Assembly (NCBI GenBank): GCA_951813395.1
Contig: OX638356.1
Coordinates: forward strand, 1,653,340 to 1,717,339
Source of the DNA: Longimicrobiales bacterium
Lineage (GTDB): Bacteria; Gemmatimonadota; Gemmatimonadetes; Longimicrobiales; Gaopeijiaceae
DNA: 64,000 nucleotides
Direction: 5' to 3'
A program made the position numbers and the translations under genes. The notes beneath the pieces are model-generated. The model saw only the letters and a program-made list of their open reading frames with translations. It was not told where the DNA came from and ran no database searches. Shown here one piece after another: positions 4,250 through 9,291 of the stretch. How positions within the stretch are numbered: the stretch's first letter is position 1; each line of letters begins with the position of its first letter.

Positions 4250-5293
4250 ATGAGCGGGCGCCGGATCGAGGAAAGAGGAATCGACCAAGTGACTGACACC
4301 CCCGAACCCCGCCCGGACGGCGAGGTCGTCGTCTATGAGGCCCCGGACGGCGAGGTCACGCTGAACGTGCGGTTCGACCAGGACACCGTGTGGTTGACGC
4401 AACGGCAGATGGCGGAAGTCTTCGTCACATCGAGCGAAAACGTGATCATGCATCTTCGCAATGTGTTCGCGCAGAATGAGTTGGACGAGCTGGCAACTAC
4501 TAAGGATTTCTTAGTAGTTCGAACGGAAGGAGCACGCCGGGTCCGCCGCTCCCTAAAGCACTACAACCTCGACGCCATCATCTCGGTTGGCTATCGGGTG
4601 AACTCGAAGCGCGCCGTGCGGTTTCGCCGGTGGGCCACGCGCACACTTCGCGAGCACCTGGTCCGGGGCTACACTCTGAACGAACGCCGCTTGGCCGAGC
4701 GCGGCCTCCGTGAAGCCAGAGAGACGCTGGATCTGCTCGCGAGCACCCTCCGTAGCCAGTCGTTGGTGAGCGGCGTCGGAGAGGCCGTCCTGGAGCTGGT
4801 CACGCGCTACGCCGACACGTGGCGGCTGCTACTCGAATACGACGAGAACCGACTCGAGACTCCGCAGGGCACGCGGCCGCCGACCGCTGCCCTCGACCAC
4901 GAGCATGCGATCGCTGCGATTGCGGGCTTCAAGGCGGCGCTGGTCGCGCGCAAAGAAGCGTCGCACCTCTTCGGCATTCAACGTGGAGATGCGCTGGAAG
5001 CCATTCTCGGCAACGTCGAGCAGACCATGTTCGGCGAGCCTCTGTACCGCACCCGCGAAGAGAAGGCCGCGAATCTGCTCTACTTCCTGGTCAAGGACCA
5101 TCCGTTCACGGACGGGAACAAGCGGATCGCCTCGCTGCTCTTCCTGCTCTACCTTCGCCAGGAGGGGTTGCATCACGACCTGAACCCCCAGGCGCTCACC
5201 GCGCTCACTCTTCTCATCGCCGAGAGCGCTCCCGCCAACAAGGACCTGTTGGTCCGCTTGGTCGTCAATCTTCTGGCGGGCTCGGAGGCCTGA
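4250..5293 (+). CDS. RhuM-Fic/Doc fusion protein
   Basis: 347 residues with two parts. Residues about 25-145 form the RhuM (virulence) domain, recognisable by VTLNVRFDQDTVWLTQRQMA and YNLDAIISVGYRVNSKRAVR. Residues about 215-330 form a Fic/Doc domain with the active-site loop HPFTDGNKR (284-292), which has the catalytic His, the acidic metal ligand and the anion-binding GNKR. Fic/Doc enzymes move AMP or phosphate onto proteins; Doc-like toxins phosphorylate EF-Tu. The substrate here is unknown. An in-frame GTG at 4289 with AGAGGA upstream is an alternative start. No separate antitoxin gene is adjacent, so the RhuM half may act as the regulator or as a DNA-binding or partner-recognition module. 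RhuM-Fic fusions are typical accessory genes of unknown role. Confidence 0.85.
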   Translation: MSGRRIEERGIDQVTDTPEPRPDGEVVVYEAPDGEVTLNVRFDQDTVWLTQRQMAEVFVTSSENVIMHLRNVFAQNELDELATTKDFLVVRTEGARRVRRSLKHYNLDAIISVGYRVNSKRAVRFRRWATRTLREHLVRGYTLNERRLAERGLREARETLDLLASTLRSQSLVSGVGEAVLELVTRYADTWRLLLEYDENRLETPQGTRPPTAALDHEHAIAAIAGFKAALVARKEASHLFGIQRGDALEAILGNVEQTMFGEPLYRTREEKAANLLYFLVKDHPFTDGNKRIASLLFLLYLRQEGLHHDLNPQALTALTLLIAESAPANKDLLVRLVVNLLAGSEA

Positions 5294-5305: not shown

Positions 5306-6199
5306 TCAGCCCCGCAGGTGCTCGTTGAAGAACGCGATGGTTCGCTCCTGCGCGAGGCCGGCGGCTTCCTCGTCGTAACGTGGGGTAGTGTCGTTGTGGA
5401 ATCCGTGGTTCGCGCCCTCGTAGACGTGGACCACGAAGTCCTTCCCGTTTTCCTCCAGCGCCGCCTGGTAGGGCGGGTAGCCGGCGTTGATCCGCTCGTC
5501 CAGGCCCGCGAGCTGGATCATGAGGGGCGCCTGTATGGAGGGCACGTCCTCGAGGTTCGGCGCCGATCCGTAGAACGGCACCCCGGCGCCCAGATCCGGA
5601 AGCCGGACCGCGAGCTGGTTCACAACTCCGCCGCCGTAGCAGAACCCGACGGCCCCGACTCGCCCCGTGGTCGTCTCGTGGTCCCTCAGGAATCGGAACG
5701 CGGCGAGCCAATCCTCCATCATCACGGCCCTGTCGAGCTGCCGCTGCATCACCCGGCCCTCGTCGTCGTTGCCGGGATAGCCACCCAGGGGGGTGAGCGC
5801 GTCCGGCCCCAGCGCCACGAAGTCCGCAGCGGCGAACCTGCGCACCACGTCTTCGATGTAGGGGTTCAGACCGCGATTCTCGTGGATGACAAGAACGGCT
5901 GGCTTTGGCTCCGTCGCGTCGGCGGGCACGGCCATGTATCCCCGCATGGTCCCCGAACCGTCCGGCGAAGCGTAGGTGACGTACTCCTGGCGGATGCGGG
6001 CATCGTCGGGCGTCACCTGGCGCGCCCACGCGTAGTTGGGCCGAAGTGCCTCGAGGACCGCCGCGGCAGCCGCGCCGCCACCCAGCACCTTCCCGGCCCC
6101 TTCCAGAAAATCCCGACGCTGGATATGCCCGTGGACATAGCCGTCGAAGAGCGCCAGCACCTCCTTGGGGAAATCGCTTGCCTTCTTTCGTTTGGTCAT
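5306..6199 (-). CDS. Tat-exported dienelactone hydrolase family protein
   Basis: 297 residues, alpha/beta hydrolase. The N-terminus carries a twin-arginine-like signal (RRDFLEGAGKVLGGGAAAAA, about residues 28-47), so it is probably periplasmic. The catalytic set is that of dienelactone hydrolases: nucleophile Cys in VGFCYGGG, Asp in GLDERINAG and His in GANHGFHND. The first strand reads AVLVIHENRGL, the usual DLH pattern. These enzymes hydrolyse enol-lactones or related esters; an exported member may act on exogenous esters. The ATG at 6199 is preceded by GGAG at workable spacing; an upstream extension of this frame has no site. It converges on the RhuM-Fic gene with a 12 bp gap. Confidence 0.85.
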   Translation of the reverse strand: MTKRKKASDFPKEVLALFDGYVHGHIQRRDFLEGAGKVLGGGAAAAAVLEALRPNYAWARQVTPDDARIRQEYVTYASPDGSGTMRGYMAVPADATEPKPAVLVIHENRGLNPYIEDVVRRFAAADFVALGPDALTPLGGYPGNDDEGRVMQRQLDRAVMMEDWLAAFRFLRDHETTTGRVGAVGFCYGGGVVNQLAVRLPDLGAGVPFYGSAPNLEDVPSIQAPLMIQLAGLDERINAGYPPYQAALEENGKDFVVHVYEGANHGFHNDTTPRYDEEAAGLAQERTIAFFNEHLRG

Positions 6200-6328
6200 G
6201 GGTATTCTCCGCTGCTGACTTGTTCCTGCCGGGCGTCGCCCGTGATGACCTCTTGGGGCCTCCAGCATGCAGTTGGCGGCCGGAGCACGCAAGCAATGGT
6301 CAGACCTCTGGCACCGGCTGCCGGTAGC

Positions 6329-6388
6329 GTGTCCCATTCGAGCATGCGAGTGTCCCGGCTTTTGCCGCGGAACCGCGGGCGGTGGGGC
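6329..6388. repeat. Left copy of a 60 bp inverted repeat bracketing the HNH gene
   Basis: About 50 of 60 positions match the reverse complement of 8052-8111. The shared core includes GTCCCATTCGAGCATGC and TTTGCCGCGGAA. Read on the minus strand, this copy translates as PRFRGKSRDTRMLEWD; the right copy read on the plus strand gives PRFRGKSRDTGMLEWD. Most differences are silent, including a two-base change between serine codons TCC and AGC. This suggests a coding origin or an element under peptide-level constraint. Confidence 0.75.
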
Positions 6389-6464
6389 GGGCGAGGTCGG
6401 GTGGCCAGCCTCCGGTGCTGGCCTCCCCGCCATCGCCGGGCTCTCAGCCTCGCGTGCCGGCCGC

Positions 6465-7729
6465 TCACCCGCCAGCGCCTGCCTCGATGGCCTCCCGTGC
6501 CGCGGCCTCGACTTCCCACGGAACCGCGCCGTCCGCGAGCCGCGCCGCGCCGTTGTACATCTGCCCGGGCCGAAGCGGTGGGGCGGGGGGCAGCGCGGGC
6601 GTCAGCTTCGGCTCGTTCACCGGCGGCGGCACGCTCCCCAGCATCTTGCCGCCGCGCGTGAAGAACACCGCCTGACCCGTCGCGTCGAGCGCCATCCGCA
6701 CCCGCCCCTCGTGCACCAGCCGGTGGTGCCGCCGGCAGAGCAGTACGGTGTTCGCCAGACTCGTCTCGCCGCCGTCGGCCCAGTGCTTCACATGATGCGC
6801 CTCCGTGAACCGGCCCCCGCAACCCGGATACCGGCAGCCCCGGTCCCGCTCCTCGAGCGCGCGGCGTATGTGCGGCGGGATCGTCCGCGTCTTCCGCCCC
6901 ACGCTGACTACCTTCCCCTCCCGGTGCAGCATCCGCACCAGCGACGCATCGCACGCCATGCGCCGCGACGTCTCCGCGCTCACCCGCACCCCGTCGACCT
7001 CCGACCGGCCCCCCTCGCCGTGCTCCTCCAGCGTGGCCATCTCGGCATGCACCGTCACCTGGTACCGCTCGGCCCGCGTCCCGCTGTGCGCCGCCTTCAG
7101 CCCCGCCGCCAGCGCCCGCTCGGCCACCAGTCCCGCCGCATCGGCCCTGCGCTGGCGGCTCGTCGGCCGCGCCTCGGGGTCCTCGCCCCGGTACAGCGCG
7201 TCCGTTGCGGCCTCGATCGCCCGCATCAGCACGGCCCCCGCCTCGGGCTCGAGCCTTCCGCGCACCACGTACGTCCCGTCGGCGTCGATCACCACCGAGA
7301 ACGCGCGCCGCTGGTGCCGCACCTCCTCGGCCGTCAACTCGCCGTCACGCGACAGGTGCCGCCATCCCCGCACCCTCCGCTCGAGCTCGGCGGCGGAGAC
7401 CTGTCGGCCAATTCGAGCAGTTCACCTTCCGTTGCCTCCGTGGCCACCCGGGTGATCGCCCGCACCTTGGTGTAGGACAGCCGTCCGGCCTCCATCTCGG
7501 CCGAGGTCCTGGGCAGGTCCTGTAGCGCGTGGGCGACCCGCACGTTCTCGCGGCAGGTGCCGATCGTGCGGCCGGTGCTCCAGGCGAGCCACTCGGCGCA
7601 GGAGTTGAACGCGTCGGCCCACCCCTCGCGGCGGTCGAACTCGGCGATGAGGGTGAGCATCTCGTAGGTGGCGATGTTGATCCGTGCGGCGAGTTCGACG
7701 ATGCGCTCGCCAAGTTGGGCAATGGTCAT
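6465..7729 (-). pseudogene. DUF222-HNH endonuclease gene, frameshifted
   Basis: The gene is split over two frames. The first part (7729 down to about 7400; MTIAQLGERIVELAARIN to GELLELAD) is the N-terminal half of DUF222, with GAGGAG six bases before its ATG. The second part, one frame over, continues VSAAELERRVRGWRHL and runs to 6465. It contains the HNH nuclease: CRYPGC, then AHHVKHWADGG, then NTVLLCRRHHRLVHEG, with the zinc-binding Cys/His pairs intact. Adding one base in the CC at 7400-7401 restores a single reading frame of about 420 codons, the usual size for this family. These genes are often multicopy and selfish. Real frameshift or read error cannot be separated here. Confidence 0.85.
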
Positions 7730-7771
7730 GGCTGACTCCTCAAGTTCAAGTCCGGCAGATAGTTAGGTGCA

Positions 7772-7796
7772 GCGCGGGTCGTGGTTCGATCCGCGC
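7772..7796. repeat. GC hairpin in the HNH gene leader
   Basis: GCGCGG (7772-7777) pairs with CCGCGC (7791-7796) across a 13-base loop. Three outer pairs (GGT with ACC) form if three bases bulge out. It lies about 45 bp upstream of the HNH start. The loop includes GGTTCGATCC, which resembles a tRNA T-loop but does not fold into a tRNA arm. Confidence 0.35.
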
Positions 7797-8051
7797 ACCA
7801 GTAAGTTAACTACCGTTTTTCGGCCCTCTGTAATGGCCCAGGCCGCGAAAAGTCGCCTCAGGACGACTCGAATGGGTCGTGGACCGCCGATCGGCCCGCC
7901 CGAGGCTTCCTGCGGCCCCCGGGGGCCATTGTGGCAGAGGTCCGGGACCTTGCCGAAGCCGCGTTTTCAGAACCCGTCCATAGCTGGATGGGACTACGTT
8001 CCCGCGTTTTGGGACAGGCGTTGGCTTGAGAACCGGCCGACGGGCTCGTGG

Positions 8052-8111
8052 GCCACCCCCCACGTTTCCGCGGCAAATCCCGGGACACCGGCATGCTCGA
8101 ATGGGACGCGG
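8052..8111. repeat. Right copy of the 60 bp inverted repeat bracketing the HNH gene
   Basis: Mate of 6329-6388 in opposite orientation. It ends 25 bp before the stop codon of the M19 gene. Together the two copies define a 1.78 kb unit whose only gene is the DUF222-HNH nuclease. I see no target duplication outside them. Confidence 0.75.
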
Positions 8112-8136: not shown

Positions 8137-9291
8137 CTACCCCAGAATCTCCTCGTACACCCGCATGAAGTTGCCGCCCATGACCTGCGCGACTTCGGCC
8201 CCCGAGAACCCCCGCTGCTCCAGCCGCTCCGCGATGATGTGCATCTTCTCCGGGCGATCGAGTTCCTCGATGAAGGGCGGCCAGCGCAGGTCGACCTCCG
8301 GCTTGAACTCGAACTGGGCGTGGAAGTCCCAGAACGCCTGCTCGGTGGGGAACGAGGTGCGCCAGCCCCCGATGCTCGAGTCGGTGCCGATGCCGACGTG
8401 GTCGACACCCACCAGGTCGGCTACGTACGCGATGTGATCGATGTAGTCGTCCAGCGTGGAGCGAGGCTTCTTGCTCACAAAGAAATTGACGGTGGTGATG
8501 CCCATGACGCCGCGCCGCGCCGCCAGCGCCCTGATCTCCTCGTCGGTCTTGCAGCGGGGGTTGTCGCACAGGGCGCGACAGTTCGCGTGGGTGAACAGGA
8601 CCGGCGTGCTGGAGACCTCGATCGCGTCCATCGTGCTGCGCACCCCGGTGTGGGACACGTCGACCAGCATCCCCAGCTCGTTCATCTTCTGCACAACCTC
8701 GACTCCGAAGTCGCTGAGCCCGACATCGACCCGCTCCGTGCACCCCGCCCCCAGCGCATTCAGCGAATTGTAGGTCAGCTGCATCTGCCGGATGCCCAGG
8801 TTGTAGAAGAAATCGACATTGGCCAGGTCGCGCTGGAGGTGTGTCGCGTTCTGGAACCCGATCATGACCGCGATTCCGCCCGTGCGCTTCGCCTCCAGAA
8901 TATCCGCCGACCGCCGCACGTGGATGACGCGGCCCGGATACCGGTTGAAGATGCCGTGCCAGCTCGCGATGTCCTGCACGGCCTGCTCGTAGCCGAAGGG
9001 AGGATCGCCCGGAGCCCCCAGCGTCGTCTCGATCATGGTAAGGCCCGAGCGCTCGATCTCGTCGAAGCCCTCCGGCCCGAACCGGAGTCCGCCGAGCGCG
9101 TCGATCCAGATGTCGTCCTGGCGGGTGGGGGCGGAGTGGCGGGCCGGGTTGCCCGCGCCGGCGGGGTCGGGCTGGCGAGCGTTGGGGGTCAGCTCCGCCG
9201 CCCGGCCGATGACGTGCTTGCCCCCGCCGAGGCCGAGCGCGGCCCCAGCCATCCCTGCCTCCCAAACGAATCTCCGGCGTGAAACTGACAT
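8137..9291 (-). CDS. Exported M19-type (membrane dipeptidase-like) protein with altered metal ligands
   Basis: 384 residues with a twin-arginine signal at the start (SRRRFVWEAGMAGAALGLGG). The barrel is that of renal/membrane dipeptidases: VDVSHTG and LFTHANCRALCDNPR supply two of the family histidines, and VGIGTDSSIGG is the usual late Asp segment. Two expected ligands look changed. Where the family has an N-terminal His-x-Asp, this protein reads DIWIDALGG, keeping only an Asp; where a bridging Glu is expected it reads MIGFQNATHLQ. The binuclear zinc site may therefore be incomplete, or the protein may belong to a divergent exported clade with other ligands. Dipeptidase or beta-lactam-type hydrolysis should not be assumed. 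Confidence 0.75.
   Translation of the reverse strand: MSVSRRRFVWEAGMAGAALGLGGGKHVIGRAAELTPNARQPDPAGAGNPARHSAPTRQDDIWIDALGGLRFGPEGFDEIERSGLTMIETTLGAPGDPPFGYEQAVQDIASWHGIFNRYPGRVIHVRRSADILEAKRTGGIAVMIGFQNATHLQRDLANVDFFYNLGIRQMQLTYNSLNALGAGCTERVDVGLSDFGVEVVQKMNELGMLVDVSHTGVRSTMDAIEVSSTPVLFTHANCRALCDNPRCKTDEEIRALAARRGVMGITTVNFFVSKKPRSTLDDYIDHIAYVADLVGVDHVGIGTDSSIGGWRTSFPTEQAFWDFHAQFEFKPEVDLRWPPFIEELDRPEKMHIIAERLEQRGFSGAEVAQVMGGNFMRVYEEILG

What the first reader, a model, noticed from the sequence alone, without database searches (positions are those of the whole stretch)
6329..8111. HNH nuclease gene bracketed by 60 bp inverted repeats that look protein-coding
Two near-identical 60 bp copies in opposite orientation enclose a 1.78 kb unit with only a DUF222-HNH gene. 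In one frame both copies read PRFRGKSRDTxMLEWD with mostly silent differences, including a two-base Ser codon change (TCC against AGC). This suggests either a nuclease-driven mobile unit with coding ends, or remnants of a duplicated small gene flanking a selfish HNH gene. I know of no named element with this layout.
Basis: partly seen in the sequence, partly recalled or inferred. Interest (0 to 1): 0.65.

Follow-up and report, generated by a model that had tools for sequence, protein, structure and literature searches.

The report
IS-like mobile element, HNH nuclease only
The window holds one dead copy of a 1.8 kb mobile element found eleven or more times in this Gemmatimonadota genome, whose only gene is a DUF222-HNH nuclease and whose ends are 45-bp inverted repeats; related repeats sit in-frame inside two host genes in sister species, and no known transposase is encoded, so an HNH enzyme may be driving the spread.

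Summary
In detail: inverted repeats at 6328-6385 and 8053-8110 (50/58 identical) bracket only a DUF222-HNH gene. That copy is dead (1-bp deletion near 7402). The own genome has about 32 repeat copies. All 11 convergent pairs enclose a DUF222-HNH gene or its remains, and every close paralogue is bracketed, at about 1.8 kb per unit unless interrupted by another IS. Eight copies are intact, under purifying selection (dN/dS 0.14), and cluster by genome. Orthologous flanks in two relatives lack the element. So it is a mobile, IS-like unit. The repeats are its ends, with distinct left and right versions, not remnants of a gene.

Sister genera keep only 1-7 direct copies upstream of the gene; an unrelated Luteitalea copy has its own inverted repeats. 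In a sister clade the repeats sit in-frame in two host genes (polysaccharide deacetylase, galactokinase), which explains the 'coding' look. The model shows a ParB/Noc-like DNA-binding region plus HNH. No TSD was found and the right boundary varies, so I favour HNH cleavage at the repeats plus repair copying over cut-and-paste; this step is inferred. In one relative an IS630-like element may carry copies. Closest known: REP13E12 (family), REP/RAYT (layout).

The parts
8053..8110 (-). left (gene 5') terminal repeat, left-type version
   Evidence: nhmmer E 3.9e-15
7730..8018 (-). conserved 5' non-coding region between left repeat and start codon (promoter/leader; no RNA structure supported)
   Evidence: alignment; no covariation; no Rfam match in related loci
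7334..7729 (-). N-terminal ORF of the frameshifted DUF222-HNH gene (ParB/Noc-like DNA-binding region)
   Evidence: frameshift; fold (model of an intact paralogue)
6465..7373 (-). C-terminal ORF of the same gene: rest of DUF222 and the HNH nuclease domain
7400..7404 (-). approximate place of the 1-bp deletion that kills this copy
   Evidence: alignment to intact paralogue in L027
6386..6464 (-). 3' non-coding stretch between stop codon and right repeat
6328..6385 (+). right (gene 3') terminal repeat, inverted relative to the left one
   Evidence: nhmmer E 7.3e-14
5306..6200 (-). flanking host gene, dienelactone hydrolase family (not part of the element)
   Evidence: Pfam PF01738; orthologue without the element next to it
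8137..9291 (-). flanking host gene, membrane dipeptidase M19 (not part of the element)
   Evidence: Pfam PF01244

Best explanation
It is a degenerate copy of an insertion-sequence-like mobile element, about 1.8 kb, that carries only a DUF222-HNH nuclease gene and is delimited by about 45-bp inverted repeats with distinct left and right versions. The nuclease most likely binds the repeats through its N-terminal ParB/Noc-like helix-turn-helix region and cuts at or near them with its HNH domain; new copies then arise when the cell repairs the break with an element as template. The repeats are also duplicated on their own, as tandem arrays at the element ends and as solo or tandem inserts elsewhere, in two cases in-frame inside host genes. 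Shown here: multicopy unit, constant bracketing in this genome, presence/absence between species, lineage-specific amplification, purifying selection, no other gene inside, internally deleted derivatives that keep both ends. Inferred: binding, cutting, and copying by repair.
For: 32 repeats in the own genome, 11 convergent pairs, all with DUF222-HNH or its remains between them. The nine full-size own copies, and about ten of twelve close copies examined in five relatives, have repeats on both sides. Homology between own copies covers the 1.7-1.9 kb unit at 90-96%. Element absent between the orthologous flanking genes in G013 and G003. Copies cluster by genome in the tree; dN/dS 0.14 among eight intact copies. 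Left/right repeat versions consistent across the genus. Upstream direct repeats of the same architecture in sister lineages, so the repeat is an old partner of the gene. Independent 46-bp, 85% inverted repeat around a Luteitalea DUF222-HNH gene. Structure model: N-terminal ~100 residues match ParB/Noc (probability 0.98, rmsd 2.5), C-terminal HNH (IscB/McrA HNH by sequence). Short derivatives with both ends and different internal deletions in G018. No other credible gene in the element.
Against: No target-site duplication seen and no exact empty site for a whole element. The right boundary is not constant: three own copies share 68-75 bp and two share 200 bp beyond the right repeat. In sister lineages there is no downstream repeat, and copies stay alike only up to the stop codon. 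Several distant DUF222-HNH lineages are multicopy without any repeats found. The G018 copies sit inside an IS630-like element that could have moved them. Foldseek E-values are weak (none below 0.001) and pTM is 0.46. Binding and cutting are untested.
Confidence: 0.58

Rival explanations
1. Passenger model: the unit is a non-autonomous or nested passenger moved by another transposase in trans, such as the IS630-like element around the G018 copies or an unseen enzyme that recognises the repeats; the HNH gene is a selfish or defence cargo.
For: In G018 several copies lie inside an IS630-like element with ends TAGTGTCATGTCACAC. No HNH enzyme is known to me to act as a DNA transposase on its own.
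Against: IS630-like ends were not found near the own-genome elements or the other loci scanned and own outer flanks mostly differ. None of the convergent repeat pairs read brackets a transposase instead of DUF222-HNH. The repeat follows the gene into sister lineages. Purifying selection on the gene.
Confidence: 0.2
2. Homing and gene-conversion model without true transposition: the HNH enzyme cuts allelic or paralogous sites that carry the repeat, and copies are homogenised and spread by homologous recombination; the inverted arrangement is incidental to array turnover.
For: No TSD, variable right boundary and shared right flanks, tandem arrays of varying number, clustering by genome. REP13E12, the mycobacterial DUF222-HNH repeats, rank among the most gene-converted loci of M. 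tuberculosis (PMC13061034).
Against: Gene conversion alone does not create copies at new, unrelated sites; most own-genome copies have unrelated outer flanks. Inverted ends cannot serve as the two arms of a simple split target site.
Confidence: 0.17
3. Remnants of a duplicated small protein-coding gene on both sides of the HNH gene.
Against: 31 copies show mostly amino-acid-changing differences, equal variation at codon positions 1 and 3, and a different frame is used in the deacetylase gene. No stand-alone gene with this peptide was found.
Confidence: 0.03

Closest known systems
REP13E12 / '13E12 repeat family' of Mycobacterium tuberculosis (DUF222-HNH; Gordon et al. 1999, cited in PMC10589994)
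   Same: Same protein family as far as the literature names it (REP13E12/HNH endonuclease/DUF222), several similar copies per genome, function undefined, prone to gene conversion.
   Different: Whether REP13E12 has inverted end repeats was not tested here; the papers I could search do not mention them. The host phylum differs.
REP/REPIN sequences with RAYT (TnpA-REP) genes
   Same: A nuclease gene bracketed by short inverted repeats that also occur elsewhere on their own; alike in layout (from established knowledge of RAYTs).
   Different: The RAYT enzyme is an HUH/Y1 protein acting on hairpins; here the enzyme is HNH and the repeats do not fold better than shuffled DNA.
Classical IS elements with terminal inverted repeats (DDE families)
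   Same: About 1.8 kb, one gene, inverted ends with left/right asymmetry, internally deleted derivatives.
   Different: No DDE, DEDD, HUH, tyrosine or serine recombinase found; no TSD seen.
Rickettsia palindromic elements (RPE)
   Same: Short repeats inserted in-frame into conserved protein genes (deacetylase, galactokinase).
   Different: Here the same repeat type also forms the ends of a nuclease element; RPEs have no known enzyme (own knowledge).
Free-standing HNH homing endonucleases
   Same: Selfish spread by DNA cutting and repair would fit the variable right ends.
   Different: No intron or intein, and inverted repeats at the ends.

Membership tests
DUF222-HNH (REP13E12-type) protein family | DUF222 domain followed by HNH motif | tested here: met
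   Pfam PF02720 and PF01844 above cut-off for window and intact copies
DUF222-HNH (REP13E12-type) protein family | several similar copies dispersed in the genome | tested here: met
   16 DUF222 matches in own genome, 8 intact close copies
DUF222-HNH (REP13E12-type) protein family | same ends as REP13E12 | not tested
   no mycobacterial genome was fetched
Classical IS (DDE/DEDD/HUH/Y/S transposase) | encodes a known transposase | tested here: not met
   only DUF222-HNH found in the element
Classical IS (DDE/DEDD/HUH/Y/S transposase) | terminal inverted repeats | tested here: met
Classical IS (DDE/DEDD/HUH/Y/S transposase) | target-site duplication | tested here: inconclusive
   none seen by eye next to the ends, but exact empty sites are lacking
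REP/RAYT | Y1/HUH protein | tested here: not met
   Pfam gives DUF222 and HNH only; NCBIfam only a sub-threshold HNH match
REP/RAYT | imperfectly palindromic, hairpin-forming repeat | tested here: not met
   z-scores -0.1 to -1.4
IscB (RNA-guided HNH/RuvC) | RuvC domain and conserved guide RNA next to the gene | tested here: not met
   only the HNH part matches, 20 bits against cut-off 175; upstream region shows no covariation
RPE | repeat inserted in-frame in host genes with repeat-free orthologues | tested here: met
   deacetylase and galactokinase in sister species; not for the window copy itself

The most novel reading that the evidence does not exclude
An autonomous bacterial mobile element whose mobility enzyme is an HNH nuclease with a ParB-like DNA-binding region acting on specific terminal repeats, a mobility chemistry outside the known DDE, DEDD, HUH, tyrosine, serine and Cas1 classes, which also seeds its repeat into host proteins.
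Probability: 0.33. Interest if true: 0.88.

Novelty: new variant of a known kind. Interest (0 to 1): 0.63.

Why it matters
DUF222-HNH proteins are annotated in many genomes, and the M. tuberculosis REP13E12 members are described as lacking defined function (PMC13061034). Defined ends and a partner repeat turn that into a testable system: a candidate enzyme, a candidate DNA target and a candidate mobile unit. If the HNH protein moves the element, it would add a nuclease class to DNA mobility. The in-frame inserts in galactokinase and a deacetylase give an example, outside Rickettsia, of mobile repeats feeding into proteins.

Tried and rejected
Structured guide-like RNA in the conserved upstream region: no covariation, no Rfam match. 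Repeats as REP-like hairpins: no excess folding. Repeats as coding remnants: rejected by substitution pattern. Exact empty sites: window flanks are empty in G013 and G003 but the intergenic DNA does not align to the base; joined flanks of four other sites gave no junction-spanning hit that settles the boundary. Target-site duplications: none seen. IS630 as general carrier: found only in G018. Defence system: no PADLOC match. Plasmid collection: only four distant DUF222-HNH matches. The first structure model (8 sequences) was too poor and was replaced by one from 64.

Full report
Observation. Between them lies one gene on the minus strand, DUF222 followed by HNH. In the window it is broken: aligned to an intact paralogue it lacks one base near 7402, which gives the two ORFs 7334-7729 and 6465-7373.

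The same genome. A 121-bp query around one arm finds 32 places in the 4.09 Mb own genome; a core pattern finds 31 against 2 for the reversed control. Read with the DUF222 and HNH searches these form 11 convergent pairs, and all 11 enclose a DUF222-HNH gene or its remains: eight intact copies, the window copy and two internally deleted ones. Only four repeats stand alone, two of them near scraps of the element. The unit is about 1.7-1.9 kb, 90-96% identical between copies; four copies are longer because other DNA, including IS110-family elements, is inserted in them. Left ends often carry two direct copies of the repeat, right ends one. Left and right versions differ at fixed positions and keep this kind of difference in other species.

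Mobility. In G013 the same two flanking genes (dienelactone hydrolase and M19 dipeptidase) are separated by 411 bp with no element, and in G003 by other genes. Copies cluster by genome in a tree of 30 genes. Among eight intact own copies dN/dS averages 0.14, so the protein has been kept functional. Contigs of several relatives end inside element copies, as expected of repeated DNA. In G018 there are derivatives of about 0.36-0.56 kb that keep both ends but lack most of the gene, each with different deletion points. I first took these as proof of end-dependent movement, but they and other G018 copies lie inside an IS630-like element with outer ends TAGTGTCATGTCACAC, so in that genome IS630 may have carried them. 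No such ends were found near the own copies or the other loci scanned.

Wider distribution. The repeat was found in 17 of 59 searched genomes, counting the own genome, all in the same genus. Of twelve close copies that I could examine in five relatives, about ten have repeats on both sides. In sister lineages with 53-60% identical protein, the gene has one to seven direct repeats upstream, period about 80 or 100 bp, with consensus CCCGAATTCACATNCGCGTGTCCCATTCTGCCATTGACG. It shares the architecture CCC-N-CAT-N4-GTGTCCC-N4-TGCC with the window repeat, by eye, but not enough letters for a solid model match; no inverted copy lies downstream. A de novo search for inverted repeats around related genes found strong ones only in this genus and, independently, in one Luteitalea copy (46 bp, 85%). 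So the upstream repeat looks like the old feature and the inverted downstream copy like a feature of this genus. Contig lengths tie G009, G016, G018 and G022 to Gemmatimonadota MAG records.

Repeats in host genes. In G011, G007, G004, G020 and G022 a polysaccharide deacetylase gene carries one to four in-frame copies of the repeat right after its start (read as HSSMPVTRRLPRK and variants); 14 other orthologues, the own genome's included, start without them. This explains how such repeats can look protein-coding.

The protein. With 64 related sequences AlphaFold gives pLDDT 81.6, pTM 0.46. The N-terminal ~100 residues match ParB and Noc structures (probability up to 0.98, rmsd about 2.5 over 104 columns, but weak E-values), which fits a DNA-binding region; the C-terminus is HNH, nearest by sequence to IscB and McrA HNH. 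NCBIfam gives only a sub-threshold IscB HNH match, PADLOC none. The conserved 290 bp upstream of the gene show no RNA covariation and no Rfam family, and the repeats do not fold better than shuffled sequence, which speaks against an IscB-like guide RNA and against a RAYT-like hairpin mechanism.

Mechanism. No target-site duplication was seen. Right boundaries vary: E029, E031 and E034 (named after loci L029, L031, L034) share 68-75 bp beyond the right repeat and E032 and E035 share 200 bp, while left outer flanks show only partial sharing; in other lineages similarity between copies stops at the stop codon. This fits copying by break repair, anchored on the repeat side and loose on the other, better than a cut-and-paste reaction. 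I therefore propose that the DUF222-HNH protein binds and cuts at the repeats and that repair spreads the element and multiplies the repeats. Binding, cutting and copying are inferred. The main rivals are carriage by another transposase and pure gene conversion.

Known relatives. The nearest named thing is REP13E12 of mycobacteria: DUF222-HNH repeats described in 1999, listed as a repetitive element in PMC10589994, among the most gene-converted loci of M. tuberculosis and without defined function (PMC13061034). I found no open paper that joins DUF222, HNH and inverted repeats, and a search for an HNH element with terminal inverted repeats led only to casposons and unrelated papers. Library limits apply: most subscription papers are missing, and I did not test REP13E12 ends.

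Noticed in passing
own genome near 572.9, 1256.6, 2797.6, 3526.8, 3702.6 and 3787.9 kb (L027, L038, L029, L033, L034, L035): Six repeats carry DNA inserted at one and the same point (GCGGAA|CCTCCATGG...); where read, the insert encodes an IS110-family transposase (Pfam DEDD_Tnp_IS110), as if that IS targets this repeat the way some IS110 elements target REPs.
   Followed up: partly
L155-L159 (deacetylase) and L317-L319, L309 (galactokinase): In-frame tandem copies of the repeat inside conserved host genes of a sister clade, absent from most orthologues.
   Followed up: yes
L039, L040, L041 (own genome near 1055, 491 and 3112 kb): A second DUF222-HNH subfamily, three copies 95-97% identical without these repeats; L040 has a near-perfect 15-bp direct repeat at its borders (AATGTTTAGTATTGG / AATGTTAAGTATCGG).
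   Followed up: partly
left flanks of own copies near 84.5, 2669, 2820 and 3702 kb; right flank of the copy near 3533 kb: Palindrome ACCCTGACGTAACGTTAGGGT (or close variants) about 100-200 bp outside the element ends, within partly shared 42-86 bp blocks; possibly a separate small repeat or an operator.
   Followed up: no
G018 loci L146, L288, L289, L290, L298: DUF222-HNH copies and derivatives nested in an IS630-like element with ends TAGTGTCATGTCACAC.
   Followed up: partly
window 4250-5293 (+): RhuM-type protein with a C-terminal Fic domain (Pfam Virulence_RhuM and Fic), next to the region studied.
   Followed up: no
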